From Streptomyces sp. CoH27 (GTDB taxonomy: Bacteria; Actinomycetota; Actinomycetes; Streptomycetales; Streptomycetaceae): 64,000 nucleotides of DNA. Where the stretch lies: assembly GCF_020181035.1 (NCBI RefSeq), contig NZ_JAIQYY010000002.1, forward strand, positions 295,284 through 359,283, written 5' to 3'. Both the position numbers and the translations under genes were made by a program. Shown in pieces: positions 19,589-36,810 of the stretch. Every line of letters starts with the position of its first letter. Positions within the stretch are counted from its first letter, which is position 1. The notes below the pieces were generated by a model, which saw nothing but the letters and a program-made list of their open reading frames with translations, had not been told where the DNA came from and made no database searches.

Positions 19589-22500
19589 TCAGCGCGCCAC
19601 CGCCAGCCGCAGCGTGCACACCTCGAACGGCCGGAGCCGCACCGGCACGGCGTTCCCGTCCGTCCGGGCCGGTTCGAGCGGGCGTTCCAGCAGGTCGGTG
19701 ATCTCGGCCCCGGCCAGCGGGAACCCGGTGCGCAGGACACCGCTCGCGCGGCCGCCCCGGGACTCGTACAGCCGGACCACCACATCGCCGGATCCGTCGT
19801 CGGCGAGCTTGACCGCCTCCACGGTCACGCCCTCGCCCTCGGCGGAGACGACCGGCTCGGGCTCGCCCGCCGAATCGGCCACCCGCAGCGGGAGGTTGAG
19901 GGCGTAGCCCTCGGCGACCGCGTCCTCGATGCTCGCGCCGGGCAGCAGGGCGTAGGTGAAGCGGTGGCGGCCCTGGTCGGCCTCGGGGTCGGGGATCCGC
20001 GGGGCGCGGACCAGGCTGAGGCCGACCCTGGTGGTCGTACCCCCGTCCTCGCGGACCGTGCGGGTGACGTCGTGGCCGTAGGTGGAGTCGTTGATCACCG
20101 CGACCCCGTAACCGGGTTCGGCGATGTGCACCCAGCGGTGGCCGGAGACCTCGAAGCGGGCCGCCTCCCAGGTGGTGTTGGTGTGGGTGGGCCGCTGGAT
20201 GTGGCCGAACTGGATCTCGGCCGAGGAGTGCGCGGCGCGCACGTCGACCGGGAAGCCCGCCTTGAGGATCTTCTCCGTCTCGTGCCAGTCGATGTCCGTC
20301 TCGAAGTCGACGCGGGCGCTGCCCGCGCGGACGGTGATCGTCTGGGTGATCCGGGAGCCCTTGCCGAAGGAGCGGACCACGCGGATCGCGCCGACGAGCG
20401 GGGTGTCCTCGACCACGGTGACCGAGTCCGGCTCCAGCAGGTCGGTGTAGCGGTTGCGGTAGTGCTCGTCGATGTCCCAGGCGTCCCAGTAGTTCGGCAG
20501 GTCCGTGTGGAGACGGAGGAGGTTGCCGGGACCGGCGAGGACTTCGCGGCCCGCGCGCAGATCGAATACAGAAGACAGTGTTCCGTCGTCTGTCACCTGT
20601 ACACGGACGATCCCATTTTCCATGCACCGCCCGCCGCTCACCGTCACCGGGTGCGGGGGCTCGGCCGGGTCGAGGGGCGCGGAGCCGTTCGCGGGCACCC
20701 GGACGTACACCGGTGCGCCCTCGGGGGTGCGGACCACCTCGGCGCGGTCCCGGGGGCTCGTGTTGAACACGCGGGGCGCACCGGTGCCCAGGGCGGCGAT
20801 CGCCTCGCCGGTGAGCGCCGTCAGCTCCCCGGCCACGCGGGCGTACTCGGCCTCGGCCTCGCGGTGCACCCAGGCGATGGAGGAGCCGGGCAGGATGTCG
20901 TGGAACTGGTGCAGCAGGACCGTCTTCCACAGCCGGTCGAGCTTCTCGTACGGGTAGGCGTAGCCCGGCGCGTGCAGGGCTGCCGTGGTGGCCCACAGCT
21001 CGGCCTCGCGCAGCAGGTGTTCGCTGCGCCGGTTGCCCTGCTTGGTGCGGGCCTGGGTGGTGTACGTGGCACGGTGCAGCTCCAGGTACAGCTCGCCCAC
21101 CCACACCGGGGCGTTCGGGTACTCGGCCCGGGCCTTGGCGAAGAACGCGTCCGGGTGCTCGATCTCGACCTTCGCCGAGCCCTCCAGGTCCTTCAGACGG
21201 CGGGCGCGTTCCATGATCTCGCGGGTGGGGCCGCCGCCGCCGTCGCCCCAGCCGAAGGGGGCGAGGGAGCGGGTGGCGCCGCCCTTCTCGGCGTAGTTGC
21301 GTACGGCCCGGGACATCTCCTCGCCGCTGAAGCGGGCGTTGTAGGTGTCGATGGGCGGGAAGTGGGTGAAGATCCGGGTGCCGTCGATGCCCTCCCACCA
21401 GAAGGTGTGGTGGGGGAAGGTGTTGGTCTGGTTCCAGGAGATCTTCTGGGTGAGGAACCAGTCGTTGCCGGCGAGCTTGGCCAGCTGCGGGTAGGCCGCG
21501 GTGTAGCCGAAGGAGTCAGGCAGCCAGACGCCCTTGGTCTCGATGCCGAAGTGGTCCATGAAGAACCGCTTGCCGTGGATCAGCTGGCGGGCGAGTGCCT
21601 CGCCGCCGGGCAGGTTGCCGTCGGCCTCCACCCACATGCCGCCGACCGGCGCCCACTGGCCCTTGGCCACGGACTTCTTGATCCGCTCCCATACGTGCGG
21701 GTAGTTGTCGCGGACCCACTCGTACTGCTGGGCCTGGGAGCAGGCGAAGACGAACTCCTCGTACTCGTCGGCGAGCGCGGTGACGTTGGAGAAGGTCCGG
21801 GACGTCTTGCGCTTGGTCTCGCGGATCGGCCACAGCCAGGCGGAGTCGATGTGCGCGTGGCCGACGCCGGAGACGATGTGCGCGCTGGCGTGGGCGGGTT
21901 TGGCCAGGACCGGGCGCAGGGCCTCGCGTACGGCGGTCGCCGAGCCGGGGACGTCGTCCAGGTCGAGCAGGTCCATGGCCCGGTCGAGGGCGTGGGTGAT
22001 CTCGTGCCGGCGCGGGTCGTGCTCGCCGAGCTCCCGCATCAGTTCGCGCAGCACCTGGAGGTCGAGGTCGAGGTGCCAGACCTCCTCGTCGAGGACGGCG
22101 AGATCGGCACGCCGGAATGTATACAGTGGACGGTCGCCTGCCGTCCGTACATCGCCGAGCGGAGTCGGTGCCACGAATTCGTTCGCGAGGATGTCGGGGT
22201 TGGAGGCGGCCTCGACCAGGTAGTCGATGACCTCGCCTCCGGTCGCCGGGTTGGCGATCGGCACGTACTGGTTGAGCGGGTTGACCGCCTTCAGCGGGGT
22301 GCCGTCGGTGCGGTGGACGAGCGCCTCGGCCTGGTTGCCGGGCCAGTCGCCGGTGAAGCCGAGGTCGATGACGGCCTCGACGCGCCGGCCCGCCCACTCG
22401 GCCGGCACCCGGCCGTTCATCCGGAACCAGGTCGTGCCCCAGGGCGGACCCCATGGGGTGTCCATGGCGAACGGCGCGTAGGGGGCGGCCGCGGCCTCCT

Positions 22501-22636
22501 CGAAGGAGACCGGCTCCCCGGGCGCCTGCCAGGCCGCCACCTCCAGGGGGACGCTGGCCGCGTAGATCGCGGGCTTGATGCGCTGGTCGTGGAGGCGTGC
22601 GACACGCTCCTCGATGCGGCGGCGTTCGTCGTGCAT
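19589..22636 (-). CDS. GH38 alpha-mannosidase
   Basis: The 1015-residue cytoplasmic enzyme (no signal peptide) has the GH38 catalytic core. GHAHIDSAWLWP (259-270) supplies zinc ligands His262 and Asp264, and WLPDSFGY (371-378) contains the likely nucleophile Asp374. A later HQFHDILPGSS provides another zinc-site histidine. The N-terminal beta-domain and C-terminal sandwich are of normal length. It hydrolyses terminal alpha-mannosides from imported oligosaccharides. It lies downstream of DeoR and GH4 genes on the same strand, but a palindromic operator in the 45-bp gap suggests extra local control. Two short AT-rich codon patches are present (about 20560-20640 and 22105-22150). Confidence 0.96.
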   Translation of the reverse strand: MHDERRRIEERVARLHDQRIKPAIYAASVPLEVAAWQAPGEPVSFEEAAAAPYAPFAMDTPWGPPWGTTWFRMNGRVPAEWAGRRVEAVIDLGFTGDWPGNQAEALVHRTDGTPLKAVNPLNQYVPIANPATGGEVIDYLVEAASNPDILANEFVAPTPLGDVRTAGDRPLYTFRRADLAVLDEEVWHLDLDLQVLRELMRELGEHDPRRHEITHALDRAMDLLDLDDVPGSATAVREALRPVLAKPAHASAHIVSGVGHAHIDSAWLWPIRETKRKTSRTFSNVTALADEYEEFVFACSQAQQYEWVRDNYPHVWERIKKSVAKGQWAPVGGMWVEADGNLPGGEALARQLIHGKRFFMDHFGIETKGVWLPDSFGYTAAYPQLAKLAGNDWFLTQKISWNQTNTFPHHTFWWEGIDGTRIFTHFPPIDTYNARFSGEEMSRAVRNYAEKGGATRSLAPFGWGDGGGGPTREIMERARRLKDLEGSAKVEIEHPDAFFAKARAEYPNAPVWVGELYLELHRATYTTQARTKQGNRRSEHLLREAELWATTAALHAPGYAYPYEKLDRLWKTVLLHQFHDILPGSSIAWVHREAEAEYARVAGELTALTGEAIAALGTGAPRVFNTSPRDRAEVVRTPEGAPVYVRVPANGSAPLDPAEPPHPVTVSGGRCMENGIVRVQVTDDGTLSSVFDLRAGREVLAGPGNLLRLHTDLPNYWDAWDIDEHYRNRYTDLLEPDSVTVVEDTPLVGAIRVVRSFGKGSRITQTITVRAGSARVDFETDIDWHETEKILKAGFPVDVRAAHSSAEIQFGHIQRPTHTNTTWEAARFEVSGHRWVHIAEPGYGVAVINDSTYGHDVTRTVREDGGTTTRVGLSLVRAPRIPDPEADQGRHRFTYALLPGASIEDAVAEGYALNLPLRVADSAGEPEPVVSAEGEGVTVEAVKLADDGSGDVVVRLYESRGGRASGVLRTGFPLAGAEITDLLERPLEPARTDGNAVPVRLRPFEVCTLRLAVAR

Positions 22637-22659: not shown

Positions 22660-22671
22660 GAAAGCGCTTTC
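22660..22671. promoter_or_regulatory. LacI-type palindromic operator before GH38
   Basis: GAAAGCGCTTTC is a perfect 12-bp palindrome with the central GCGC typical of LacI-family operators. It lies 24 bp upstream of the GH38 start and 11 bp from the 22682 end of the GH4 gene. No LacI-family gene is in the window. Confidence 0.6.
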
Positions 22672-22681: not shown

Positions 22682-24019
22682 CTACTTTAGATAGGCCAGA
22701 CCGGGATGGACCTCGGTGTACCCGTCGACCAGCCGGCGGGCCACGTTCACCGAGTCGACCAGCGGATGCAGCGCGAACGCCTTGACGGCCGTCGCACGCG
22801 AACCGGACTCGGCGGCCGCGAGCACCTCGCGCTCGACGGCCTTGACCGAGCAGACGAGGCCGGTGGCGTGGCCGGGCAGCGGGTCGACGGCGACCGGGTG
22901 GGCGCCGTTGGCGTCGATCAGGCAGGGGACCTCGATGACAGCCTCCGTGTCGAGCACCGAGAGGGTGCCGCGGTTACGGACGTTGAGGATCAGGGTGGTG
23001 CGCTCGTCGCGGGCGATGGCCCGCATCAGCGCCAGAGCGACCTTCTCGTAGCCGCCGGAGAGGTCGTCGGCGTCGCGTTCGCCGGCGCCGGCCGTCTCCC
23101 GGTTCTCGGCCATGTAGGTCGCCTCGCGCTCGGCGCGGGTACGGTCCCAGGCCTCCAGAGCGTTCGCACCCGGGTCCCTGACCTCCTCGTAGAAATGCGC
23201 CTGCTGGTCGCGCAGGAAGGCGCCGCGGGTCTTCTCGGCCTGCTGGTAGGCGCGGACCGCCTCGCGGTTGAAGTAGTAGTAGTGCAGGTATTCGTTGGGA
23301 ATGGCACCGAGGGACCGGAGCCAGTCGACGCCGAAGAGCTTGCCCTCCTCGAAGGAGCCGAGCAGGTCCGGGTCGGCGAGCAGGCGCGGGAGTTCGTCGC
23401 GGCCCGCGATGCGCAGGCCGCGCACCCAGCCGAGGTGGTTGAGGCCGACGTAGTCGATCCAGGCCTCCTTCGGATCGGCGCCGAGAACCCGGGCGATACG
23501 GCGGCCGAGGCCGACCGGGGAGTCGCAGATGCCGATGACGCGGTCGCCGAGGTGGCGGGACATGGCTTCGGTGACCAGTCCGGCGGGGTTGGTGAAGTTG
23601 ATGACCCAGGCGTCGGGGGCTAGGCGGGCCACCCGCTGGGCGATGTCGACGGCGACGGGGACGGTGCGCAGACCGTAGGCGATGCCCCCCGCGCCGACCG
23701 TCTCCTGGCCGAGGACGCCCTGCGCCAGCGCGACCCGCTCGTCGTCGGCGCGGCCCTCCAGGCCCCCGACCCTGATCGCCGAGAAGACGAAGTCGGCACC
23801 ACGCAGGGCCTCGTCGAGGTCGGTGGTGGCGGTCACGGTGGGGGCGTCGGCGACGGTCGACGCCTGTTCAGCCAGTACACGGGCGACTGCATGCAGTCGA
23901 CTGTCGTCGAGATCGTGCAGCACGACCTCGGTGACCCGCCCCTCGCCGCGGTCCGTCAGCAGTGCCCCGTACACGAGCGGCACCCGGAACCCGCCGCCGC
24001 CCAGAATCGTCAGTTTCAC
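22682..24019 (-). CDS. GH4 NAD- and metal-dependent glycosidase
   Basis: The GTG-started, 445-residue protein belongs to GH4. This family needs NAD+ and Mn2+ and uses redox-elimination chemistry. Visible features are the dinucleotide-binding LGGGGFRVPL (6-14), VGAGGIAYGLRTVP (108-121), NFTNPAG (141-147), and Cys165 (GICDSPVG) and His195 (LNHLGW) as metal ligands. Closest in pattern are 6-phospho-beta-glucosidases, which act on phosphorylated disaccharides. The start overlaps the DeoR stop as GTGA. No PTS component is nearby, so if the enzyme needs a phosphorylated sugar, the phosphate must come from elsewhere, such as the substrate or the divergent kinase. Some GH4 members act on unphosphorylated substrates. 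Confidence 0.92.
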   Translation of the reverse strand: MKLTILGGGGFRVPLVYGALLTDRGEGRVTEVVLHDLDDSRLHAVARVLAEQASTVADAPTVTATTDLDEALRGADFVFSAIRVGGLEGRADDERVALAQGVLGQETVGAGGIAYGLRTVPVAVDIAQRVARLAPDAWVINFTNPAGLVTEAMSRHLGDRVIGICDSPVGLGRRIARVLGADPKEAWIDYVGLNHLGWVRGLRIAGRDELPRLLADPDLLGSFEEGKLFGVDWLRSLGAIPNEYLHYYYFNREAVRAYQQAEKTRGAFLRDQQAHFYEEVRDPGANALEAWDRTRAEREATYMAENRETAGAGERDADDLSGGYEKVALALMRAIARDERTTLILNVRNRGTLSVLDTEAVIEVPCLIDANGAHPVAVDPLPGHATGLVCSVKAVEREVLAAAESGSRATAVKAFALHPLVDSVNVARRLVDGYTEVHPGLAYLK

Positions 24020-24801
24020 GCTTGAGCCTTTCCTGCCAGGACCACCTCGACACCGGCCTCCTCCAGGGCGGCCCGGGTCGCCGGGTCCACCGGCGCGTTG
24101 GTCACCACCATGTCCAGGTCCTCGGGACCACAGACCTTCGCCATGCCCGTACCCGGGAACTTCGCCGAGTCGGCAAGCAGCACGGCCTTGTCGCTCGCCT
24201 TGATCATGGCGCGCTTGACGGGCACCTCCACGACCGTCGTGTCCATCACCTGTCCGCCCGGGCGCACCCCGCTGGTGCCGAGGAAGAGCCAGTCGGCGTG
24301 CAGCTGCCGCAGGTTGTCCTCCGTGAGGAAGCCGACCAGGGAGCGATACTCGCGCCGGACCATGCCGCCGAGCAGCACCAGCTCGATGCCCTCGTCGTCG
24401 GCCAGTTCCTCGTACACCACCAGGTTGCTGGTGATGACGGTGAGGCGGCGGCCGTGCAGCTGGCGGGCGAGCCGGAAGGCGGTGGTGCCGATGTCGAGCA
24501 GCACCGACTGGCCGTCCTCGACCATCGCCGCGGCGCACGCGGCCAGCGCGTCCTTCTCGGCCACGCGCACCTCGGCGACCTCGGCGAAGGGCTGGTCGCC
24601 CTCCTCGACGACGGCGCCGCCGTGGACACGTGTGAGCAGCCCGTCCTCCTCCAGCTTGACCAGATCGCGTCTGATCGTGGCGGGGCTCACCCCCAGCCGC
24701 TCGGAGAGGTCGGTCACAGCTGCGGGGCCGCCGGAGCGCAGGGCCCGCAGGATGAGTTGGTGTCGTCGTTCTGCCAGCACGCCACGAACACTACTCGTCA
24801 T
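24016..24801 (-). CDS. DeoR-family transcriptional repressor
   Basis: The 261-residue protein has an N-terminal DeoR helix-turn-helix (RRHQLILRAL; LGVSPATIRRDLVKLEEDGLLTRVHGGAV) and a C-terminal sugar-phosphate-binding domain (LDIGTTAFRLARQL; VLLADSAKF). Family members release DNA when bound to a phosphorylated intermediate. The ATG at 24801 was chosen over an in-frame TTG at 24807. No good ribosome site is seen, so translation may start near the transcript's end. It is the first gene of the leftward operon and diverges from the kinase-led operon, so it is the natural regulator of both. Confidence 0.93.
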   Translation of the reverse strand: MTSSVRGVLAERRHQLILRALRSGGPAAVTDLSERLGVSPATIRRDLVKLEEDGLLTRVHGGAVVEEGDQPFAEVAEVRVAEKDALAACAAAMVEDGQSVLLDIGTTAFRLARQLHGRRLTVITSNLVVYEELADDEGIELVLLGGMVRREYRSLVGFLTEDNLRQLHADWLFLGTSGVRPGGQVMDTTVVEVPVKRAMIKASDKAVLLADSAKFPGTGMAKVCGPEDLDMVVTNAPVDPATRAALEEAGVEVVLAGKAQA

Positions 24802-24908
24802 CTTCAATCAAATCTATGCTCACTTCTGCTCGGGTATTGACCAATCTCGCAGAGCAGCGCACGATTCCGGTCATCGAAAATGACGAGTTTTGACGAGAGG
24901 CTGTGCGC
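24802..24908. promoter_or_regulatory. Divergent control region of the glycoside cluster
   Basis: This 107-bp AT-richer gap lies between DeoR and the kinase. It contains repeated TGACGAG at 24881-24887 and again GACGAG at 24892-24897, separated by TTTT. TCAAT/ATTGA and TCAT/ATGA inverted pairs are also present. Tandem short repeats are common at DeoR operators, but an exact site cannot be fixed. Confidence 0.45.
24895..24900 (+). promoter_or_regulatory. Ribosome site fixing the kinase start
   Basis: GAGAGG is 8 nt before the GTG at 24909 and only 2 nt before the GTG at 24903, so the downstream GTG is the better start. Confidence 0.6.
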
Positions 24909-25961
24909 GTGGACGACGACAGGCCCGATGTGCTGCTGACCGGGCTGCTCTTCTACGACCTCGTCCTCACGGGGCTCCGGAAGCCGCCGACGCCGGGCGA
25001 GGAGATCTGGACGGCCGGCATGGGCTGCGGCCCGGGCGGCATCGCCAACCTCGCCGTGGCCGCGTCCCGGTTCGGCCTGCGCACCTCGCTGGCCACGGTC
25101 TTCGGCGACGACTTCTACGGCGCGTACTGCCGTGGCGTCCTCGACGAGCAGGAAGGCGTCGACCTCTCGCTCTCCCGTGTCGCGGACGACTGGCCCACCC
25201 CCGTCACCGTCTCGCTCGCCTCCGGCCACGACCGGGCCCTCGTGACCCACGGCCAGGAACCCCCGTACTCGCAGGACACACTCATGGGCGACCCGCCCGA
25301 GGCGCGCACGGCCCTCGTGCATATCGAGGCCGAACCGCGCGAGTGGCTCGCCAAGGCCGCCGCGAACGGCACCCGGATCTACGCCGACGTCGGCTGGGAC
25401 CCGGCCCAGGAGTGGTCCTCGGACCTGCTCGACCAGCTCGCCCTGTGCCACGCCTTCCTCCCCAACGAGACCGAGGCGATGGCCTACACCCGCACCGACA
25501 GCGCGACGGCGGCCCTCGGCACGCTCGCCGAGCTGGTGCCGGTGGCGGTGGTCACGCGGGGCGGCGACGGCGCGATGGCCGTCGACCAGACGACCGGCGA
25601 GTACGCGGAGGTCCCGGCCCTGGCCGTCGATGTCCTGGACCCGACGGGCGCCGGGGACGTCTTCGGCGCGAGCTTCGTCGCGGCCTCGCTCGGCGGCTGG
25701 CCGCTGGCGCAGCGGCTGCGGTTCGCGGTCCTGGCCGCGGGCCTGTCCGTCCGGCATCACGGCGGGGCGCTCGCGGCTCCGGGCTGGTACGGCGTCGACC
25801 GCTGGTGGCGCTCGCTGACGGACCCGGAACTGCGCCGCGCGTACGGCTTCCTGGCCGACCGCATCCCGGCCGACGTCGGCCCGCCCGTGCGCCACGCCCC
25901 CGTCACCCCGCCGGCCCCTCACCCGACCGTCGGCCCGCACGCCCGCGAACGGCGGCCCTGA
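24909..25961 (+). CDS. PfkB-family carbohydrate kinase
   Basis: The 350-residue protein is a ribokinase-like sugar kinase. The N-terminal glycine-rich substrate motif is GCGPGGIANLAVAASRFG. The C-terminal signature is DPTGAGDVFGASF, whose GAGD supplies the anion hole and catalytic Asp. It phosphorylates a sugar, or a nucleoside or sugar phosphate; the exact acceptor is not predictable. It is the first gene of the rightward operon and may make the phosphorylated inducer for the DeoR repressor or feed phosphorylated sugar to metabolism. The C-terminal ~30 residues are a Pro/His-rich tail. Confidence 0.92.
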   Translation: MDDDRPDVLLTGLLFYDLVLTGLRKPPTPGEEIWTAGMGCGPGGIANLAVAASRFGLRTSLATVFGDDFYGAYCRGVLDEQEGVDLSLSRVADDWPTPVTVSLASGHDRALVTHGQEPPYSQDTLMGDPPEARTALVHIEAEPREWLAKAAANGTRIYADVGWDPAQEWSSDLLDQLALCHAFLPNETEAMAYTRTDSATAALGTLAELVPVAVVTRGGDGAMAVDQTTGEYAEVPALAVDVLDPTGAGDVFGASFVAASLGGWPLAQRLRFAVLAAGLSVRHHGGALAAPGWYGVDRWWRSLTDPELRRAYGFLADRIPADVGPPVRHAPVTPPAPHPTVGPHARERRP

Positions 25962-26008: not shown

Positions 26009-27286
26009 GTGGACCTTTCTCGTAGAGGCTTCCTCCAGGCCGCCGCGCTCACCGCGGCCGCCTCCGGTCTGACCGTCGCGTGCGGCGGCGGCTCGGGCTC
26101 GGGCGGCACCAAGAACGGCAAGAACCTCACCCTGTGGTACTGGGGTGGCGCGCTCAGCGACAAGGTGGTCGCGGAGGCCAAGTCACACTTCGGCAGCGGG
26201 GTCGGGCTGACCGTCGCCTCCATCGGCGGCGACTTCAAGCAGAAGCTCACCACCACCCTCGCGGCGGGCAGCTCCGTGCCCGACATCACCGGCATCAAGG
26301 GCGAGGACATGGCGTCCTTCCTGCCCAACGCCGCCCGCTTCCTCGACCTGAACGACCTGGGCTTCAAGACGCTCTCGTCCCAGTACCTGGGGTGGAAGAC
26401 CAAGCTCGCCCAGACCTCCGACGGCAAGCAGATCGGTTTCCCGATCGACATCGGTCCCACCGCGCTCTTCTACCGCGCGGACCAGTTCGAGAAGGCCGGG
26501 CTGCCCACCGACCCCGGCAAGGTCGCCGCGGCGGCCAAGACCTGGGACGACTACTTCGCGCTCGGCACCGAGCTGACGAAGAAGGCGCCCGGCACCTACC
26601 TCGTCAACAACATCGGCTCGGTGTTCACCATGGCCGTCGGCCAGGGCACCAAGCGGTTCATCGACAAGAACAACCACTTCATCGGCGACCAGGACCACAT
26701 ACGCGCCGCGTGGACCACGGCGATCCGCCCCTACACGCTCGGCATCGACGCCAAGATCAACGACAACAGCTGGAACGCCGCCATCGGCAAGAGCCTGACC
26801 ACCGAACTCGGCGCGGCCTGGCACGCGCTGGACATCGAGCAGGCGGCTCCGGGCACCAAGGGCCAGTGGCGGGTGTGCGCGATGCCCGGAGGACCGGCCA
26901 ACCAGGGCGGCTCCTACCTGGCTCTGCCCCGGCAGTGCCGCAACCCCGAAGAAGCCTTCAAGATCATCAGCTGGATCCTCAGCCCGGCCAACGACGCCCG
27001 CGGCTTCACCGACGCCGCCATCTTCCCCGCCGCCCCGGCCGCCTACTCGATGCCGGCCATGACGGGCCCCGACGCCTTCTTCGGCGGGCAGAAGATCATC
27101 GAGGTCTTCGGCCCGGCCGCCCAGGCCGTTCCGGACAGCTACGAGGCGCCCGCCGACGCCGCCGTCATGGCCCCCTACATGACGGAACTGACCAACGTCG
27201 AGGCCAAGGGCAAGAAGCCCGACGACGCCTGGAAGGACGCCGTCAGCCAGGCCAGGCAGATCGCCCAGCGCCAGGGGGTGAGCTGA
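26009..27286 (+). CDS. ABC sugar-transporter substrate-binding lipoprotein
   Basis: The 425-residue protein has a twin-arginine start (LSRRGFLQAAAL) and a lipobox-like end LTVACGG, placing a lipidated Cys near residue 25. The mature part is a cluster-B family 1 extracellular sugar-binding protein (LTLWYWGGALSDKVV near its start). It captures an oligosaccharide outside the membrane for the two permeases that follow. The GTG start has AGGAG upstream. The kinase gene ends 47 bp before it and a permease gene starts one base after its stop. No ATP-binding subunit is encoded here, so a shared MsiK-like ATPase is likely. Confidence 0.95.
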   Translation: MDLSRRGFLQAAALTAAASGLTVACGGGSGSGGTKNGKNLTLWYWGGALSDKVVAEAKSHFGSGVGLTVASIGGDFKQKLTTTLAAGSSVPDITGIKGEDMASFLPNAARFLDLNDLGFKTLSSQYLGWKTKLAQTSDGKQIGFPIDIGPTALFYRADQFEKAGLPTDPGKVAAAAKTWDDYFALGTELTKKAPGTYLVNNIGSVFTMAVGQGTKRFIDKNNHFIGDQDHIRAAWTTAIRPYTLGIDAKINDNSWNAAIGKSLTTELGAAWHALDIEQAAPGTKGQWRVCAMPGGPANQGGSYLALPRQCRNPEEAFKIISWILSPANDARGFTDAAIFPAAPAAYSMPAMTGPDAFFGGQKIIEVFGPAAQAVPDSYEAPADAAVMAPYMTELTNVEAKGKKPDDAWKDAVSQARQIAQRQGVS

Positions 27287-27287
27287 G

Positions 27288-28295: not shown

Positions 28296-29140
28296 CCGCG
28301 ACGGACACGAGGCGGTCCCGGCGCCCCAGGGGCCTGACCGCGCACATCGTCCTGATCCTGGCCGTCCTGATCTCCGTCTTCCCGTTCGTGTGGACGATCG
28401 TCATGGCGACCAACACCACCCAGGACATCTACAAGAGCCCGCCGAAGATGACCCCCGGTTCGCACCTGCTGGAGAACATCCGGCATGTGCTCGACACCAT
28501 CGACTTCTTCGGATCCATGCTCAACACGGTCGTCGTCGCGTGCGTGACCACCGTCCTGGTCCTGTTCGTCGACTCCCTGGCGGCCTTCACCTTCGCCAAG
28601 TTCGACTTTCCCGGACGCCGGGTGCTGTTCGCCACGCTGCTGGGGTTCATGATGCTGCCGCTCCAGCTGGCCGTCCTTCCGCAGTTCATCCTGATGTCCC
28701 ACCTCGGCTGGGTCGGCACGCTCCAGGCACTGATCCCGCCCGCCCTCGCCAACGCCTTCGGTATCTTCTGGCTGCACCAGTACATCGAGAACGGCGTGCC
28801 GGACGAACTCCTCGACGCTGCGCGCATCGACGGCGCCGGGTTCTTCCGCCAGTACTGGAACATCGTGCTGCCGATGATCAGGCCCGCGCTGTCCTTCCTC
28901 GCCATCTACGCCTTCGTCGGCGCCTGGAACGACTACATCTGGCCGCTCGTCGTGCTCACCGACCCGGGCCACCTCACCCTCCAGGTGGCGCTCGCCCAGC
29001 TCCACGTCGGCCACACCACCGACTACAGCATGGTCATGGCCGGCGTGCTCATGGCATCCGTCCCGCTGGTGATCGTCTTCACGATCTTCGCTCGCGGCTT
29101 CATCGCGGGGGCCACGGAGGGAGCGGTGCAGGGCAGCTGA
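28292..29140 (+). CDS. ABC sugar permease, MalG/UgpE type
   Basis: The 282-residue protein has six transmembrane helices and the EAA-type loop DAARIDGAGFFRQYWNIVLP. It pairs with the MalF-like permease upstream, and its ATG overlaps that stop as ATGA after GGGAGGAAG. The set lacks its own ATPase, as is common for Streptomyces sugar importers. It is followed by a 74-bp gap before the phosphodiesterase gene. Confidence 0.95.
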   Translation: MTATDTRRSRRPRGLTAHIVLILAVLISVFPFVWTIVMATNTTQDIYKSPPKMTPGSHLLENIRHVLDTIDFFGSMLNTVVVACVTTVLVLFVDSLAAFTFAKFDFPGRRVLFATLLGFMMLPLQLAVLPQFILMSHLGWVGTLQALIPPALANAFGIFWLHQYIENGVPDELLDAARIDGAGFFRQYWNIVLPMIRPALSFLAIYAFVGAWNDYIWPLVVLTDPGHLTLQVALAQLHVGHTTDYSMVMAGVLMASVPLVIVFTIFARGFIAGATEGAVQGS

Positions 29141-29214: not shown

Positions 29215-30270
29215 GTGACGGACGTCGAGGCCGGGGGAGGGCGGGCGCCGAGTGAGCGTGCGCGGGAGAGGACGGGACCTTCCGCGCGGCTGCCGTTCCC
29301 CCGTCACAGTGCCGCTGCCCCCGGAGGGGACGGCACCACGCACGGCAGGGTGCTCGTGGTCGGCATGGACGGGCTGCGCTACGACCGGCTGCCCCTCCCC
29401 CAGCCTCCGGCCGGGGGGACCCCCGTCTCGCTTCGCTCACCGTCCCACGCACCCGTGCTGCACGGCCTGATGGCCGCCGGCGCCCACGGCACCAGCCTGC
29501 TGCCGTACGGCGAGGCGGACGGACAGGCCGAGGGCGGGCCGTCGACCAGCATGGCCTACACCGACTCCGGGCCCGGCTGGTCGAGCGTGCTGACCGGGGT
29601 GTGGCCCGATCGGCACGGGGTGACCGGCAACGACTTCACCGGCGCCGACTACGCCCGCTACCCCGACTTCCTCAGCCGTGCCCGCACCGCCCGCCCCGGT
29701 CTGCGCACCGCGGCCGCGGTGTCCTGGCCGGAGCTGGTCCGCCGCGGCACCCTCGGCACCGCCATCGGCCACCGGGTGCACTACGACGGCGAGTCCGACG
29801 GCTACGAGACCGCGGACCGCCTGGTCGCCCGCACCGCCGAACGCTGGCTCACCGAGGAGGACCCGGACGCCGTGTTCGTGTACTTCGGCGCCACCGACGA
29901 GGCCGGCCACGCCACGGGCCCCCTCTCCCCCGCCTACGACGACGCCCTCTTGACCCAGGACACCCACCTCGGGCGGCTGCTGGCAGCGATCGCCGCGCGC
30001 GCCGACGAGCACTGGACCGTGCTGGTCACCACCGACCACGGCCACCTCGACTCCGGCGGCCATGGCGGCGACACCCGTGCCGAACGAGAAGTCTTCGTGA
30101 TCCTCGCCGAGCCTGGCGGCGCCAGCTCCACCCGACTCGACACACCCCGCCTCGTCGACATCGCCCCCACCGTCCTGGACCGTCTCGGCATCCCCGTCGA
30201 CCCCGCCTGGGGCCTGCGGGGCCGCCCCCTGCCCCGGCCCACCCCACCACCGACTCCGGAATGGTCATGA
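29215..30270 (+). CDS. Type I phosphodiesterase/nucleotide pyrophosphatase-like enzyme
   Basis: The 351-residue product is of the alkaline-phosphatase superfamily. GMDGLRYD carries the first metal-binding Asp. GPGWSSVLTGVWPDRHGV holds the Ser/Thr nucleophile region, FGATDEAGHATGP and TTDHGHLDSGGHGG hold further metal ligands. It lacks a signal peptide and so should be cytosolic, cleaving phosphodiester or sulfate esters on imported material. The GTG at 29215 was preferred over the one at 29212 for spacing to GAGAGGGG. Between the first motif and HAPVLHGLMAAG sits a ~20-residue Pro/Ser-rich insert made by a palindromic repeat. The stop overlaps the GH2 start as ATGA. Confidence 0.88.
   Translation: MTDVEAGGGRAPSERARERTGPSARLPFPRHSAAAPGGDGTTHGRVLVVGMDGLRYDRLPLPQPPAGGTPVSLRSPSHAPVLHGLMAAGAHGTSLLPYGEADGQAEGGPSTSMAYTDSGPGWSSVLTGVWPDRHGVTGNDFTGADYARYPDFLSRARTARPGLRTAAAVSWPELVRRGTLGTAIGHRVHYDGESDGYETADRLVARTAERWLTEEDPDAVFVYFGATDEAGHATGPLSPAYDDALLTQDTHLGRLLAAIAARADEHWTVLVTTDHGHLDSGGHGGDTRAEREVFVILAEPGGASSTRLDTPRLVDIAPTVLDRLGIPVDPAWGLRGRPLPRPTPPPTPEWS
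29391..29440. repeat. REP-like palindromic insertion inside a gene
   Basis: CCCCCAGCC (29397-29405) and GGCCGGGGG (29409-29417) form a near-perfect hairpin, followed by CCCCCGTCTCGCTTCGCTCA. From memory, this resembles a dispersed intergenic repeat common in Streptomyces. Here it is in frame and encodes roughly PLPQPPAGGTPVSLRSPS. Confidence 0.6.
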
Positions 30271-33200
30271 CCGACGCACTGCCCGCCGATCCCCTGATCT
30301 CGCTGCGCCCCTGGGAGGCCCCCGAGGTGACCTCCTGGGGGCGCCTCCCCATGAACGCCGTCGACCGGCGGTCCGGCGCCCTCTCCCTGGACGGCGACTG
30401 GCAGTTCCAGCTGCTTCCCGCTCCGGACGCACAGGTGTCCGATGTGTGGTCGTCGGCACATGTTCCGGGTGTCTGGACCATGCAGGACACAGACGACCGT
30501 CCGCAGTACACGAACGTCCGTATGCCGTATACAGAATTCCCTCCGCAGTCGCCCGCCGCCAACCCGACGGGCGTGTACGAGCGCGAGGTGGAGGTGCCCG
30601 GCGAGTGGACCGGGCGCCGGATCGTGCTGCAGGTCGGGGCCGCCGAGAGCGTGCTGCTCGTGCACGTGGACGGGCGGCCCGTCGGCATCTCCAAGGACTC
30701 CCACCTGGCCGCCGAGTTCGACCTCACGGATGTCGTACGTCCCGGCGAGCGGTCGGTCGTACGGCTGACCGTGGTGAAGTGGTCCGACGCCTCGCACGTC
30801 GAGGACCAGGACCAGTGGTGGCACGGGGGCGTGACGCGGTCGGTACTGCTGTATGCGACCGACCCGCTGCACCTGGCCGACGTGAGCGTTCGGGCCGGAT
30901 TCGACGGCGAGCTGCGCGTCGACTGCCGGGTGCGCGACGCGCGCGGGACACTGCCCGACGGGTGGTACGTCAGCGGTGAGCTGGAGGGCCAACTCCTCAC
31001 CCAGGACAGCGAGTTCGACCGCGTCAACGTCGAGGACGAACGCGTCTCCGACTTCCTCGGCGAGGCCCGGATCCACACCACCGTCCCGGACGTGCGCACC
31101 TGGAACGCCGAGACGCCCGAGCTGTACGGCCTCACCGTCCGCCTGCACCGCGCCGACGGGACGGTCGCCGACACCTCGCGGCACCGCATCGGTTTCCGGG
31201 ACGTCCGGATCGTCGGCCGGGACCTGCTGATCAACGGTGAGCGGGTGTTCATCCGGGGCGTCAACCGGCACGACTTCCATCCGCTGACGGGGCGGACGGT
31301 GTCGTACGAGGACATGCGCGCGGATCTCGTGCTGCTGAAGCGTTTCGGCTTCAACGCGATCCGCACCTCGCACTACCCGAACGATCCGACGCTGTACGAC
31401 CTCGCCGACGAGCTCGGCTTCTACGTCGTCGACGAGGCGGACATCGAGTCGCACGACCACGCGCATGAGATCGCCGACGACCCGCGCTATCTGAACGCCT
31501 TCGTGGACCGGGTCTCGCGGATGGTGCTGCGGGACAAGAACCATCCGTCGGTCATCGTCTGGTCGCTGGGCAACGAGTCCGACTACGGCGCCAATCACGA
31601 CGCGGCTGCCGGCTGGGTGCGGCGGCACGATCCGACGCGGCCGGTCCAGTACGAGGGCGCCGCCAAGCTCGACTGGGCGGCCACGGACGACTGCTCCGAC
31701 ATCGCCTGCCCGATGTACGCCCCGCTGGAGGACTGCGTCGCCCACGCCCTGTCGGGGCGGCAGACCAGGCCGCTCATCCAGTGCGAGTACTCCCACGCGA
31801 TGGGCAACAGCAACGGCACCCTCGCGGACCTTTGGGCGGCCATCGAGTCAACGCCAGGTCTTCAGGGCGGGTTCATCTGGGAGTTCTGGGACCACGGCAT
31901 TCTCCAGCGTGTGAACGACGGCAGACCGGTCGGGCGTGGGGGCGCCGGGCTGTATGACAACGGTGTCGCCGCGCCGGGCCACCGCTGGGCGTACGGCGGC
32001 GACTTCGGCGAGACCATCCACGACGGCGCGTTCATCGCGGACGGCGTGGTCTTCCCGGACCGCACCCCGAAGCCTGCCCTGTACGAGCACCGGGAGATCG
32101 CGGCGCCGGTGCGTATCGAGTGCTTCAAGCACGAGGGCATCGTCCTCGGCAACCACCAGCACTTCCGGGGCCTGGACTGGCTGACCGGCACCTGGGAGCT
32201 GTCCCTGGCCGACGGCCGGACGCTGACCGCACCCGCCGCACTGCCCGATCTGCGGCCCGGTGAGACGGCTGCCGTGCCGCTCCCCTTCGAGGTGCCGCGC
32301 GACGGCGGCGAGGCCTGGCTGACGCTGCGGGTGACCGTGGCCGAGGACCAGCCGTGGGCGCCGCGCGGCACCGAGGTGTGCGTGCCGCAGGTCCGGCTGC
32401 GCGGACCCGACGCGGCCGAGGACGCGCTCGTGGACCGGCCCGTCGAGGTCGACGGCGAGGGCCTGCTGGTCCATCCGCTGCTGGCGGCCGCCCCCACGCT
32501 GTCGCTGTGGCGGGCGCCCACCGACAACGACGAGCTGGGCGGCATGGCGGAGCGCTGGCGGGCGTGGGGGCTCGACTCACTCGTCCGCAAGGTCGTGTCG
32601 GTGCGCGGGGACGGCGGCCGGGTGACCGTGGACGCCGAGTACGCCGGCACGGTCGGGGTCGTCACGCACCGGCAGGTGTTCACACGGGTCGAGGGCGGCA
32701 TCCGGATCGACGAACAGGCCGAGCTGCCCGAGCAGTTCGACGACGTGGCGCGAGTCGGCACGGTCTTCGAGACGCCCCCGGGCCTCGACCTGCTGGAGTG
32801 GTTCGGGCAGGGGCCCTGGGAGTCGTATCCCGACCGGAGCGCGGGAGCGCCCGTCGGCCATCACTCGCTGCCGGTCGACGCGTTGTTCACCCCTTATCTT
32901 CGTCCGCAGGAGAGCGGCGGCCGGCACGGCGTACGGCGGTTCACGCTGTCGGCGCCGGACGCCACCGGTCTCGCGGTCGTGCTGGACGAACCGCGGCAGA
33001 TCTCCGTCACCCGGTACCGGGCCGAGGACCTGACCACCGCGGCGCACCACGACGAGCTCATGCCTCGTCCGGGCTGTGTCGTGCACATCGACGCGGCGCA
33101 CCGGGGCCTGGGCACGGCCTCGTGCGGCCCCGACACCTTCCCCTCCTACCGCATCGCCCCGGGCATCCACCGCTGGAGCTGGACCCTGCGCGTTCTGTAA
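30267..33200 (+). CDS. GH2 beta-galactosidase, LacZ-type
   Basis: The 977-residue protein has the full LacZ-like domain order: sugar-binding jelly roll, immunoglobulin-like domain, TIM barrel, and C-terminal beta domains. NRHDFHPLTGR marks the GH2 signature. WSLGNESDYG holds the acid/base Glu and CEYSHAMGNS the nucleophile Glu. There is no signal peptide. It hydrolyses beta-galactosides, or other beta-glycosides, in the cytoplasm. It is coupled to the phosphodiesterase by ATGA. Codons at about 30430-30545 are unusually AT-rich, including the decamer GTATACAGAA. Confidence 0.96.
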   Translation: MTDALPADPLISLRPWEAPEVTSWGRLPMNAVDRRSGALSLDGDWQFQLLPAPDAQVSDVWSSAHVPGVWTMQDTDDRPQYTNVRMPYTEFPPQSPAANPTGVYEREVEVPGEWTGRRIVLQVGAAESVLLVHVDGRPVGISKDSHLAAEFDLTDVVRPGERSVVRLTVVKWSDASHVEDQDQWWHGGVTRSVLLYATDPLHLADVSVRAGFDGELRVDCRVRDARGTLPDGWYVSGELEGQLLTQDSEFDRVNVEDERVSDFLGEARIHTTVPDVRTWNAETPELYGLTVRLHRADGTVADTSRHRIGFRDVRIVGRDLLINGERVFIRGVNRHDFHPLTGRTVSYEDMRADLVLLKRFGFNAIRTSHYPNDPTLYDLADELGFYVVDEADIESHDHAHEIADDPRYLNAFVDRVSRMVLRDKNHPSVIVWSLGNESDYGANHDAAAGWVRRHDPTRPVQYEGAAKLDWAATDDCSDIACPMYAPLEDCVAHALSGRQTRPLIQCEYSHAMGNSNGTLADLWAAIESTPGLQGGFIWEFWDHGILQRVNDGRPVGRGGAGLYDNGVAAPGHRWAYGGDFGETIHDGAFIADGVVFPDRTPKPALYEHREIAAPVRIECFKHEGIVLGNHQHFRGLDWLTGTWELSLADGRTLTAPAALPDLRPGETAAVPLPFEVPRDGGEAWLTLRVTVAEDQPWAPRGTEVCVPQVRLRGPDAAEDALVDRPVEVDGEGLLVHPLLAAAPTLSLWRAPTDNDELGGMAERWRAWGLDSLVRKVVSVRGDGGRVTVDAEYAGTVGVVTHRQVFTRVEGGIRIDEQAELPEQFDDVARVGTVFETPPGLDLLEWFGQGPWESYPDRSAGAPVGHHSLPVDALFTPYLRPQESGGRHGVRRFTLSAPDATGLAVVLDEPRQISVTRYRAEDLTTAAHHDELMPRPGCVVHIDAAHRGLGTASCGPDTFPSYRIAPGIHRWSWTLRVL

Positions 33201-33245: not shown

Positions 33246-35084
33246 GTGTGTACGTCGCATGACCACAACCAGGGCGAGGCCGCGCAGGCCGGTGCCGCAC
33301 GACGCAGTTTCCTGAGGGCCACCGCCCTGCTGGGCGCCGCCGCCACGGCCGGGGTCGGCCTGCCGGCCGTCGCCGAGGCGGCTCCCGCGAGCGCGAGCGG
33401 CCGGCGGCCCGATCCCGAGAGCCGCCGCTTCACACTCGCCGTGATGCCGGACACCCAGTACCTCTTCGACGGGCCCAGCATCGACAAGGCGCCGGTCGAG
33501 GCGTCTCTGCGCTATCTGCTGGAGGAGGGCGGTGAATCCGGCGAGAACATCGCCTTCCTCTCCCACCTGGGCGACCTCACCCAGAACGGCGCGCAGGCCG
33601 AATTCGCCGCGATCAGCGAGGCGTTCCGGCTGCTGGACCGGCGGGGCGTCGGCTACAGCGTCCTGGCCGGCAACCACGACGTGAAGTCGTCGACGGACGA
33701 CCAGCGCGGCCCGACGCCGTACCTGGACGCGTTCGGGCCGCAGCGTTTCCAGGGCAAGCCGACGTTCGGCGGGGCCTCTTCGGACGGCTACAACACCTAC
33801 CACCTCTTCAAGGCGGCCGGCCGCGCGTGGATGGTGCTCGCGCTGGACTGGCGGCTGTCGGCGAAGGGGTACGCGTGGGCGAAGGACGTCCTCGCCGCGC
33901 ACCCGAAGACTCCGGTCATCCTCACCACGCACGAACTCGTCGTCGGCGACGACCAGTTGTCGACGTACGGGCAGCAGCTGTGGGACCAGCTCATCAAGGA
34001 CCACGACCAGATCTTCCTGACCCTGAACGGCCACTACTGGCCGGCCGGGCGGGCTGTCCGCAAGAACGCCGCCGGCCACGACGTGCATCTGCACCTGACG
34101 AACTATCAGAACCGCTACTTCGGCGGCGCGGCGATGATCCGCCTGTACCGCTTCGACCTGGACCGGAACGTCATCGACGTCGAGACCGTCTCCCCGTGGA
34201 TCCTCGGCCGGGCCAAGAAGGGCCTGAACGAGCTGGAGCGGCAGGAGATCGAGCTGAGCGGTGATGCGGACCGCTTCTCGGTCGGCATCGACTTCGCGGA
34301 GCGTTTCGCAGGCTTCGACCCGATACCGGCCCGCCCGGCGCGGCCCGCGTCGAAGATGCTGATCCGGGGCACGGCCGCCTACTGGCGGTTCGACTCGGCC
34401 GTCTCCGGCACGGTCCGCGACCTGTCCGGCAACGGCAACGACCTCACCGTCGTCTCGGTGGGCGGCGGCACCCTCGGCTGGTCGGCGGACCACCACCCGG
34501 ACCAGCCGGGCCACGGCAGCCTGGAGTTCACCGGGTACAAGTCCCCGCTGAAGGGCGCGTACCTGCAGACCGTCGACCGCGCGCCGCTCAACTCGGCGAC
34601 GCTCAAGGACGGTTACACCATCGAGGCGTTCTACCGGCTGCCGGCCGACTGGGACCCCGGGCACAACGCGTGGGCCGGCCTCGTCAGCCGCAGGGGCACG
34701 GGCGGCGCGGCCGGCAAGACCGCCGACGACCCCGACGAGCCGCTGGCCACCCTCTCGTTGTCCAACGACCGCGAGCCGCAGTGGGCGATGCGCCCGCTCA
34801 ACCAGGAGGGCATCGCCACCAACTGGGGCCAGGAGACGCCGCTGGAGACCTGGTGGCACCTCGCCGTCGTCAACGACGGCACGCACACGACCCTGTACGT
34901 CGAGGGCTGTCCGGTCGTCCGCAACCCGAAGGCTTCCGCCACCGGTATCGCCTCGGTCGGACTGCCGTGGCTGCTCGGCGGCTATACGTACGCCGACAAG
35001 ATCGACCAGATCCTGCACGGCCGCCTCGGCGACGTCCGGATCGTCTCCCGGGCGCTGCCCGTCTCCTCCTTCATGACCCACTGA
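33246..35084 (+). CDS. Tat-exported metallophosphoesterase with LamG-like domain
   Basis: The 612-residue product has a Tat signal (ARRSFLRATALLG, hydrophobic core, cleavage near AEAAPA). The calcineurin-like phosphatase motifs MPDTQYL, SHLGDLTQNG, LAGNHDV, TTHELVV and NGHYWPAG follow. The C-terminal ~220 residues (YWRFDSAVSGTVRDLSGNGND onward) form a concanavalin-like laminin-G domain that could hold glycans. It should act outside the cell, releasing phosphate from a glycan or lipid-linked phosphoester. ACGGAG precedes the GTG start. It lies 45 bp after the GH2 gene and continues the operon. Confidence 0.93.
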   Translation: MCTSHDHNQGEAAQAGAARRSFLRATALLGAAATAGVGLPAVAEAAPASASGRRPDPESRRFTLAVMPDTQYLFDGPSIDKAPVEASLRYLLEEGGESGENIAFLSHLGDLTQNGAQAEFAAISEAFRLLDRRGVGYSVLAGNHDVKSSTDDQRGPTPYLDAFGPQRFQGKPTFGGASSDGYNTYHLFKAAGRAWMVLALDWRLSAKGYAWAKDVLAAHPKTPVILTTHELVVGDDQLSTYGQQLWDQLIKDHDQIFLTLNGHYWPAGRAVRKNAAGHDVHLHLTNYQNRYFGGAAMIRLYRFDLDRNVIDVETVSPWILGRAKKGLNELERQEIELSGDADRFSVGIDFAERFAGFDPIPARPARPASKMLIRGTAAYWRFDSAVSGTVRDLSGNGNDLTVVSVGGGTLGWSADHHPDQPGHGSLEFTGYKSPLKGAYLQTVDRAPLNSATLKDGYTIEAFYRLPADWDPGHNAWAGLVSRRGTGGAAGKTADDPDEPLATLSLSNDREPQWAMRPLNQEGIATNWGQETPLETWWHLAVVNDGTHTTLYVEGCPVVRNPKASATGIASVGLPWLLGGYTYADKIDQILHGRLGDVRIVSRALPVSSFMTH

Positions 35085-35112
35085 CGCCCTCGAACAGGAC
35101 ACGTACCCGATC

Positions 35113-36810
35113 ATGACCGAGCAGCAGCTGCCCACCTGGGCCGACCCTTCCGTCTCCCCCGCCGACCTCGACGCCCAGAGCGTGTCCCGACGCGGGCTCC
35201 TGCGCCGCGCGGGTCTGTTCGGTGCCGCGTTCGCGCTCGGGTCGGCGGCGACCCCCGCGTTCGCGTCCCCGCAGCGCAACCTGGGCGGGGAGGACCCGCA
35301 CCTCGCCTACCTGGTCGGCGACCACCACGTCCACTCCGTGTACAGCCACGACGCGAAGTACACGTTCTCCCAGCAGGCCCGGGCCGCCGCGCGGTACGGC
35401 CTGGACTGGATGGTGTTCAACGAGCACTCCAACTTCGGGCACGCCTACTACGGCGCGAAGCTGGAGCACGCCGAAATCCTCAAGGCCCGCGCGGAGAACC
35501 CGCGTCAGCTGATCTTCCAGGGCCTGGAGTGGTACATCCCGGCCGCCGAGCACGCCACCGTGTTCGCCGCGCCCGGCCCCAACGAGACCGAGCTGCTCAC
35601 CCGGTTCGAGCTCGCCTACGACGGCAAGCTGCTCGGCTACACCGACGGCTCCGCCACCGGCACGGACACCGCCCGCAACGAGGCCCACGCCGTCAAGGCC
35701 GTCCAGTGGCTGGCCGAACAGCGCCGCACCGGCTACGTCGACGACGTCCTCGTGCTCGCCAACCACCCCCTGCGCCTCGGCATCGACTCCCCGCACGAGA
35801 TGCGCAACTGGCGGGACGCAGGGTGGGGCGGCGGGAACGAGTGGGCCCCCGAGATCGTGATCGGCATGGAGGGCGCGCCCGGCGCCCAGGGCGCGGCCAT
35901 CCCCGGCTGGCGGGGCCCGGCGTCGATCCGCGGCGAGTACGAGAACAAGCCGTCCGCGCAGTCGTGGTCCGGCTATCCGGCCGACGCCTACCTCACCTAC
36001 GGTGGTTTCGACTGGGCGACCGCGACCGTCGGCGGCCTGTGGGACTCGATGCTCGCCGAGGGCAGGCTGTTCTCGGTCACGTCCAACTCCGACAACCACC
36101 GCACGGTCTTCGACACCTGGAAGAACGGCGACTGGGCGCCCGGCCGGAACTTCGACAACACCGGCAGACTGCCCGACCCGGTGAACACGGACACCCCGCA
36201 GCCCGGCAGCGACTTCTGGCCGGGCGAGTTCAGCCGCACCCACGTCGGTGTCACCCGCTACGGCTACCGCGCGGTGATGGCGGGCCTGCGCGCGGGCCGG
36301 GTGTGGGTCGACCACGGGCATCTGCTCGACGGGCTCGACGTGCGCGTGCGGCGGGACTGCGACCACGGCCAGGGCGTCACGCTCGGCGGGCGGCTGCGGG
36401 TCCGCGCGGGCGAGCGGATCACGCTGTCGGTGACGGTCACGACGGCCTCCCGCGCCAACCCGCACGGCATCCTGCCGCGCCTCGCGCACGTGGACGTCGT
36501 CCGGGGCGCCGTGCGCGGCCCGGCCGCCGACCGGGACAGCTGGCGGGCGCCGGACACCACGGTGGTGCACACCGCGGACGTCAGCGGCCGTACCGGCACC
36601 TACACCCTGCGCATCCCGCTCACCGCCGGCGACGAGTCGTTCTACGTGCGGCTGCGCGGCAGTGACGGAAACCGGCACGGAGCCGGTTACCTCGGTGCGT
36701 CCGTCGACCCGCACGGCCCGGTCCCGCACGAGCCCGGGAACGGCGACCCGTGGGCCGACACCTGGTTCTACTCCAACCCGGTCTTCGTCGACGTGACGGC
36801 AGCCCGGTGA
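35113..36810 (+). CDS. Tat-exported PHP-domain phosphoesterase-like protein
   Basis: The 565-residue product has a twin-arginine signal (SRRGLLRRAGLFGAAFALG). A PHP (polymerase and histidinol phosphatase) metal-binding core follows: VGDHHVHSVYSHDAKYT, FNEHSNFG, GLEWYIPAAEHATVF and LANHPLRLGIDS. The C-terminal ~180 residues are beta-rich. PHP proteins use a di- or tri-metal site to cleave phosphoesters. Export and position after the Tat metallophosphoesterase suggest that the two act together outside the cell. It is the last gene of the operon, with a terminator just 4 bp after its stop. The exact substrate is unknown. Confidence 0.93.
   Translation: MTEQQLPTWADPSVSPADLDAQSVSRRGLLRRAGLFGAAFALGSAATPAFASPQRNLGGEDPHLAYLVGDHHVHSVYSHDAKYTFSQQARAAARYGLDWMVFNEHSNFGHAYYGAKLEHAEILKARAENPRQLIFQGLEWYIPAAEHATVFAAPGPNETELLTRFELAYDGKLLGYTDGSATGTDTARNEAHAVKAVQWLAEQRRTGYVDDVLVLANHPLRLGIDSPHEMRNWRDAGWGGGNEWAPEIVIGMEGAPGAQGAAIPGWRGPASIRGEYENKPSAQSWSGYPADAYLTYGGFDWATATVGGLWDSMLAEGRLFSVTSNSDNHRTVFDTWKNGDWAPGRNFDNTGRLPDPVNTDTPQPGSDFWPGEFSRTHVGVTRYGYRAVMAGLRAGRVWVDHGHLLDGLDVRVRRDCDHGQGVTLGGRLRVRAGERITLSVTVTTASRANPHGILPRLAHVDVVRGAVRGPAADRDSWRAPDTTVVHTADVSGRTGTYTLRIPLTAGDESFYVRLRGSDGNRHGAGYLGASVDPHGPVPHEPGNGDPWADTWFYSNPVFVDVTAAR

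What the first reader, a model, noticed from the sequence alone, without database searches (positions are those of the whole stretch)
19589..36810. Candidate uncharacterised catabolic system for a phosphorylated glycan
Seen: GH4, GH38 and DeoR genes divergent from a PfkB kinase, an ABC sugar importer without ATPase, a cytosolic type I phosphodiesterase, a GH2 beta-galactosidase, and two Tat-exported phosphoesterase-type proteins (one with a LamG-like domain), closed by a terminator. Known: GH4 6-phosphoglycosidases often work after PTS uptake, but none is encoded here; GH38 removes alpha-mannose. Inference: the substrate may carry its own phosphates (phosphomannan, phosphodiester-linked mannosides or GPI-like glycan), trimmed partly outside and partly inside.
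Basis: partly seen in the sequence, partly recalled or inferred. Interest (0 to 1): 0.72.

Follow-up and report, generated by a model that had tools for sequence, protein, structure and literature searches.

The report
Swappable importer–phosphodiesterase in Streptomyces glycan cluster
This Streptomyces stretch holds a gene cluster predicted to take apart a mannose- and galactose-containing glycan, and in related species one block of it (a sugar importer plus a predicted phosphodiesterase) is replaced by a different importer without that enzyme, which suggests that the imported sugar likely still carries a phosphate link.

Summary
The locus is an uncharacterised Streptomyces sugar-catabolic cluster: GH38-GH4-DeoR facing PfkB-SBP-permease-permease-PDE-GH2-MPE/LamG-PHP. 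Many relatives also carry a GH29 alpha-fucosidase beside GH38 (33 of 48 genomes); the window lacks it.

Two alleles occur. Type A (here) pairs its importer with the phosphodiesterase (PDE). Type B has a diverged importer (SBP 43-52%, permeases 49-59% identity) and no PDE; the other cluster genes stay mostly 76-94% identical. PDE tracks the importer: type A with PDE 54 of 55, type B with PDE 0 of 33 (11 of 99 loci had no SBP and were dropped). The GH38 tree needs 12 A/B switches, 6 forced by well-supported branches. Three other loci carry only GH4, DeoR, the type A importer and PDE.

So PDE most likely acts on what the type A importer brings in, which supports 'phosphorylated substrate' for the PDE-bearing allele only. 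The substrate is unknown. Real, new variant, moderate interest.

The parts
19589..22636 (-). GH38 alpha-mannosidase, 1015 aa
   Evidence: Pfam GH38 N, middle and C domains; nearest PDB chains 7ufs, 7ufr, 7ufu, named alpha-mannosidase
22660..22671 (.). palindrome GAAAGCGCTTTC in the GH38-GH4 gap, possible operator
   Evidence: one match in the window against 0.04 expected; core AAGCGCTT in this gap in 75 of 87 loci, 0 of 87 after shuffling
22682..24019 (-). GH4 NAD-dependent glycosidase, 445 aa
   Evidence: Pfam GH4; nearest PDB 6-phospho-beta-glucosidases 5c3m and 1s6y, then 6-phospho-alpha-glucosidases
24016..24807 (-). DeoR-family regulator
   Evidence: Pfam HTH_DeoR and DeoRC
24903..25961 (+). 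PfkB-family sugar kinase
   Evidence: PF00294; ribokinase-like PDB hits
26009..27286 (+). solute-binding lipoprotein of the type A importer
   Evidence: SBP_bac_8 and SBP_bac_1; twin-arginine and lipobox read by eye
27288..28295 (+). importer permease A
   Evidence: BPD_transp_1; UgpA-like below cut-off
28292..29140 (+). importer permease B
   Evidence: BPD_transp_1; UgpE-like below cut-off
29215..30270 (+). cytosolic PF01663 phosphodiesterase-like protein (start codon uncertain, 29215 to 29365)
   Evidence: AlkP-superfamily fold nearest Xac NPP; seven putative catalytic residues kept in 29 of 29 sequences; no signal peptide by eye
30267..33200 (+). GH2 beta-galactosidase, LacZ type
   Evidence: five LacZ domains; NCBIfam Bga2A-type, below cut-off
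33246..35084 (+). exported calcineurin-like phosphoesterase with LamG domain (MPE)
   Evidence: Laminin_G_3; PF00149 in relatives; Tat-type N-terminus by eye
35113..36810 (+). exported PHP-domain protein, CehA/McbA type
   Evidence: PHP and CehA/McbA matches below cut-off; Tat-type N-terminus by eye
36795..36880 (+). hairpin after PHP without a T-run
   Evidence: fold -40 kcal/mol, z -2.33; not in the terminator scan

Best explanation
The cluster is a Streptomyces locus whose enzymes are predicted to trim an alpha-mannose- and beta-galactose-containing glycan, and its importer allele occurs together with a cytosolic, predicted phosphodiesterase that therefore likely cleaves a phosphodiester on the imported solute. 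Shown: gene content; two importer alleles; repeated exchange of the importer, with PDE or without it, while the neighbouring genes stay; and small second loci with GH4, DeoR, the type A importer and PDE only. Inferred: (1) the two Tat-type exported phosphoesterases act first, outside; (2) the type A importer, driven by an ATPase encoded elsewhere, takes up an oligosaccharide that still bears a phosphodiester; (3) PDE hydrolyses it to a phosphomonoester; (4) GH38, GH2 and, in relatives, GH29 remove mannose, galactose and fucose; (5) GH4 cleaves the 6-phosphoglycoside so exposed, or one made by the PfkB kinase; (6) DeoR releases the operon when a phosphorylated product builds up. In type B strains the other importer would take up a solute that needs no PDE.
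For: Type A with PDE 54 of 55, type B with PDE 0 of 33. On the GH38 tree 12 switches, 6 forced by starred branches, and in 6 of 6 independent pairs PDE goes with the importer, p 0.031. Permease B abuts GH2 in type B (median gap 6 bases) and is separated from it by PDE in type A (median 1079). L013, L015 and L034 carry GH4-DeoR and importer-PDE without GH38, PfkB, GH2, MPE or PHP, while the main locus in the same three genomes is type B. PDE has the AlkP-superfamily fold and keeps its putative metal ligands and Ser nucleophile in 29 of 29 sequences. In Nonomuraea and kin its relatives (about 50%) sit in a sugar-type neighbourhood in 25 of 25 loci. GH4 nearest 6-phospho-glycosidases.
Against: PDE lies directly beside the permease, so co-exchange could reflect physical linkage alone. 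Most type A loci were found by searching for PDE, so 54 of 55 is biased; the GH4-centred sample has only 4 type A loci. L005 keeps the type A importer with only a C-terminal remnant of PDE. L270 has a related importer (SBP 71%, permeases 64-66%) at the minimal-locus site with neither PDE nor GH4. L040, L050 and L054 hold PDE alone, and 77 of 246 genomes have only more distant PDE relatives, best hit 41-55% identity. Type B runs the same enzymes without PDE. No activity, induction or growth data. The PDE model is weak around the active site (mean pLDDT 71).
Confidence: 0.55

Rival explanations
1. A neutral-glycan locus: the substrate is an unphosphorylated N-glycan-like or galactomannan-like oligosaccharide. 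The phosphoesterase-type genes have housekeeping or accessory roles, and PDE merely hitch-hikes beside the importer.
For: Type B loci keep the same glycosidases without PDE. GH38, GH2 and GH29 fit complex glycans; GH38's nearest PDB chains are alpha-mannosidases. One type A locus lives with a decayed PDE. The best, sub-cut-off NCBIfam match of GH4 is to alpha-galactosidase.
Against: Three phosphoesterase-type genes in one conserved locus. PDE follows the importer through at least 6 switches and into a second genomic site. GH4 is far closer to 6-phospho-glycosidases than to the unphosphorylated-substrate enzymes in the PDB.
Confidence: 0.28
2. Phosphate rather than carbon scavenging: the locus serves mainly to free phosphate from phosphorylated glycoconjugates, the sugars being a by-product.
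For: MPE relatives lie beside GDPD-PstC-PstA in 3 of 13 regions from other genera. Three phosphoesterase-type genes in the locus.
Against: A DeoR regulator, a sugar kinase and a CUT1-type importer point to sugar control. Type B lacks PDE. No Pho-box search was run.
Confidence: 0.12

Closest known systems
Actinobacterial N-glycan utilisation clusters with Ams1-type GH38 (recalled from Bifidobacterium and Streptomyces work)
   Same: GH38 of the same type, CUT1 importer without its own ATPase, several exo-glycosidases
   Different: No ENGase, GH20 or beta-mannosidase among the eleven genes; GH4, PDE, MPE and PHP instead
GH4 6-phospho-glycosidases (GlvA, BglT)
   Same: Family and nearest PDB relatives. 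PMC10628242 (passages) says that GlvA and BglT both need 6-phospho substrates
   Different: An ABC importer and a phosphodiesterase lie beside it, not a PTS; the anomer and phosphate need are untested
Nucleotide pyrophosphatase/phosphodiesterases (Xac NPP, ENPP7)
   Same: AlkP-superfamily fold and metal ligands
   Different: About 300-350 aa, no signal peptide, Ser where NPPs have a Thr nucleophile (by eye and recall), about 20% identity
CehA/McbA metallohydrolases and secreted calcineurin-like phosphoesterases
   Same: Domain families of PHP and MPE
   Different: PHP is below the NCBIfam cut-off; MPE carries a LamG domain; substrates unknown

Membership tests
GH4 glycosidase | both GH4 Pfam domains | tested here: met
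   PF02056 151 bits and PF11975 170 bits, both over cut-off
GH4 6-phospho-glycosidase subgroup | 6-phosphate-dependent substrate recognition | tested here: inconclusive
   Nearest PDB chains are 6-phospho enzymes, E 1e-68 to 1e-45, against 6e-25 to 4e-19 for the alpha-glucosidase and alpha-galacturonidase chains; one cellulase-named chain at 1e-51. The best NCBIfam match is alpha-galactosidase, below cut-off. Phosphate-binding residues were not tested
AlkP-superfamily phosphodiesterase | two-metal site with Ser/Thr nucleophile | tested here: met
   D17, S83, D193, H197, D239, H240, H248 kept in 29 of 29; roles assigned by analogy with NPPs
AlkP-superfamily phosphodiesterase | phosphodiesterase activity | not testable with these tools
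   needs an enzyme assay
CUT1 sugar importer with shared ATPase | SBP and two permeases locally, MalK/MsiK-type ATPase elsewhere | tested here: inconclusive
   SBP and permeases present; 2 OB_MalK matches elsewhere in the genome; that either serves this importer is not shown
Actinobacterial N-glycan cluster | ENGase (GH85), GH20 and beta-mannosidase (recalled) | tested here: not met
   none among the Pfam matches of the eleven genes
PTS-fed GH4 system | PTS gene in the locus | tested here: not met
   none among the eleven genes; 3 PTS_EIIC matches elsewhere in the genome
CehA/McbA metallohydrolase | NCBIfam NF038032 over cut-off | tested here: not met
   60.6 of 80 bits

The most novel reading that the evidence does not exclude
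A PTS-free route to 6-phosphoglycosides: exported phosphoesterases release phosphodiester-bearing head groups or side chains (fungal or plant glycosylinositol-phosphate lipids, GPI or phosphomannan, rich in alpha-mannose, beta-galactose and alpha-fucose); an allele-specific ABC importer takes them up with a phosphodiester intact; a dedicated cytosolic phosphodiesterase turns it into a phosphomonoester; and GH4 then splits the resulting 6-phosphoglycoside, so that the substrate's own phosphate replaces phosphorylation by a PTS or kinase. Streptomyces strains change diet by exchanging the importer-phosphodiesterase block.
Probability: 0.2. Interest if true: 0.78.

Novelty: new variant of a known kind. 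Interest (0 to 1): 0.55.

Why it matters
It gives a concrete case in which a sugar importer and a predicted phosphodiesterase are exchanged together inside an otherwise constant glycan locus: a natural experiment on what crosses the membrane. If the phosphodiester comes with the substrate, it would show how soil streptomycetes use phosphorylated glycans without a PTS, and would provide new enzymes for phosphoglycans.

Tried and rejected
Considered and set aside: a PTS-coupled GH4 (no PTS gene among the eleven; three PTS_EIIC matches elsewhere in the genome); a nucleotide-processing NPP (no signal peptide by eye, and PDE relatives sit in sugar-type loci in Nonomuraea and kin); bacterial periplasmic glucans and teichoic acids as substrates (no evidence either way; GH38 and GH29 suit them less well); a sulfatase (the Cys/Ser-x-Pro-x-Arg motif is not at the nucleophile, by eye).

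Led nowhere: the MPE model (mean pLDDT 42, not used); the promoter scan (0 found, 0.6 expected); S. scabiei secretome passages (I could not link the paper's locus tags to this locus). Rfam was not run. The notebook was written.

Literature: searches (8 in all, over an open-licence library only) listed no paper that I recognised as describing this locus, judged by titles and abstract starts. Papers opened: PMC10628242 passages; PMC11496612 outline and abstract; PMC4098958 passages; PMC4196476, PMC5872322 and PMC12736695 passages. Recalled, from no call: basidiomycete glycolipids with mannose, galactose and fucose on inositol phosphate; GH4 enzymes for unphosphorylated substrates; MsiK; the make-up of Bifidobacterium and Streptomyces N-glycan clusters; NPP catalytic residues.
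Full report
What is there. The window is Streptomyces: nearly all named relatives are, and a 97% MPE match is named S. camelliae on a contig as long (9,319,598) as contig 1 of the genome that the tool calls the same species. Nine of the eleven genes pass a Pfam cut-off for the named family; MPE passes only for LamG and PHP falls just short. GH4 overlaps DeoR, permease A overlaps permease B, and PDE overlaps GH2 by a few bases.

How far the order is kept. A scan of genome contigs with a PDE alignment found 121 relatives, of which the best 80 were kept. tblastn of the eleven proteins and the IclR neighbour found all eleven in 36 of the 55 Streptomyces loci; the others are cut by contig or flank ends, lack some genes, or hold PDE alone. 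Among 246 Streptomyces genomes GH4 matches in 243 at E 1e-60 or better. PDE at 81% identity or more is in only 22 of the 246, and in 20 of these it lies within about 7 kb of GH4 on the same contig (places read; exceptions G164 and G123). A further 77 have only more distant relatives.

Two alleles. I fetched 60 regions, 59 picked by hand from the listed GH4 places and one, L118, because of its PDE. 31 have an importer: 4 type A with PDE and 27 type B without. 4 have GH38 but no SBP (L118, L121, L127, L129). 25 have GH4 without GH38. In type B the SBP is 43-52% and the permeases 49-59% identical to the window's, whereas GH38 is 83-87%, GH2 78-88%, MPE 76-86% and PHP 81-89%; two outliers, L166 and L167, are lower (GH38 74-76%, GH2 68-69%). 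Over 99 loci, 11 without SBP dropped: A with PDE 54, A without 1, B without 33, B with 0. Near-duplicates such as L046 and L122 were not removed, and most A loci were found through PDE. On a quick GH38 tree of 79 loci (47 A, 32 B) the label changes 12 times on the best tree, 6 of them forced by starred branches; in 6 of 6 independent pairs PDE goes with the importer, p 0.031. Since PDE abuts the importer, physical linkage alone could give this.

The importer-PDE block elsewhere. L013, L015 and L034 carry GH4 (68-69%), DeoR (70-71%), the type A importer and PDE, and none of GH38, PfkB, GH2, MPE or PHP. Their genomes, and those with a lone PDE (L040, L050, L054), all have a main locus of type B (6 of 6). 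L013 and L034 share flanking genes, so the minimal loci may be one event. Exceptions: L005, with only a C-terminal PDE remnant behind a type A importer, and L270, with a 71% SBP and neither PDE nor GH4 at the site of the minimal loci. L052 and L118 are one such pair of records with PfkB followed by PDE and no importer.

More members. A GH29 alpha-fucosidase (PF01120) lies directly downstream of GH38 in 33 of 48 genomes (two genomes that appear twice counted once). It is absent from the window and from its species mate, though the genome has other GH29-family genes elsewhere. A palindrome, GAAAGCGCTTTC in the window, lies in the GH38-GH4 gap; its core is there in 75 of 87 loci. In the whole genome this loose pattern is no commoner than its reversed control (17 against 16 sites).

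The phosphoesterases. PDE is PF01663; nearest PDB sequences and folds are ENPP7, ENPP5 and Xac NPP. Seven putative catalytic residues are kept in 29 of 29 sequences. Its model is weak around the active site (mean pLDDT 71). In 25 of 25 loci of Nonomuraea and kin, PDE relatives of about 50% identity follow a LacI gene and a TIM-barrel gene, and in 24 a PEP-utilising enzyme follows; in 24, TIM-barrel, DUF993 and Gfo/Idh genes face them: a sugar or cyclitol setting. MPE relatives at E 1e-50 or better are in 37 of 394 genomes of the class and 12 of 137 genera. Of 13 regions from other genera, 3 have GDPD-PstC-PstA after MPE and 2 have PHP after it; none matched the cluster's glycosidases by tblastn. 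The SBP matched only one genome outside the genus, at 41%.

Mechanism. The simplest reading is that PDE hydrolyses a phosphodiester on what the type A importer brings in. This is inference from linkage and co-variation; no activity is shown. That GH4 works on 6-phosphoglycosides rests on nearness to such enzymes in the PDB; its best NCBIfam match, below cut-off, is alpha-galactosidase. Phospho-glycoconjugates that would fit exist: GPI-anchored galactomannan with an inositol-phosphoceramide lipid in Aspergillus (PMC5872322, passages) and inositol phosphate glycans from plant sphingolipids (PMC11496612, abstract). No data tie any of them to this locus.

Verdict. Real, conserved within the genus, and not recognised in the papers that my eight searches listed. 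A new variant of a known kind, the actinobacterial sugar-utilisation locus.

Noticed in passing
window 22660-22671: Palindrome GAAAGCGCTTTC between GH38 and GH4, LacI-operator-like in look; its core AAGCGCTT is in this gap in 75 of 87 loci, although no LacI-type gene is in the cluster.
   Followed up: partly
L060-L079, L081-L085: In Nonomuraea and kin the PDE relatives sit in a conserved LacI - TIM barrel - PDE - PEP-utilising enzyme block facing TIM barrel - DUF993 - Gfo/Idh genes: an undescribed-looking sugar or cyclitol locus.
   Followed up: partly
L257, L259, L264: MPE/LamG relatives directly before a GDPD gene and PstC-PstA phosphate-import genes in another actinobacterial family.
   Followed up: partly
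L267, L269: MPE and PHP genes adjacent in another actinobacterial family without the cluster's glycosidases, so the two exported proteins may form a pair of their own.
   Followed up: partly
L150-L165, L168-L175, L147: GH4 orthologues (81-89%) stand without the cluster in 25 of 60 regions, in some beside the same flanking genes (MaoC-like, acyl-CoA ligase) as the full cluster; the role of the lone GH4 is unclear.
   Followed up: no
G270, G271, G272 (L216-L219): Two further GH38 paralogues of about 60% identity per genome, in other sugar-importer neighbourhoods.
   Followed up: no
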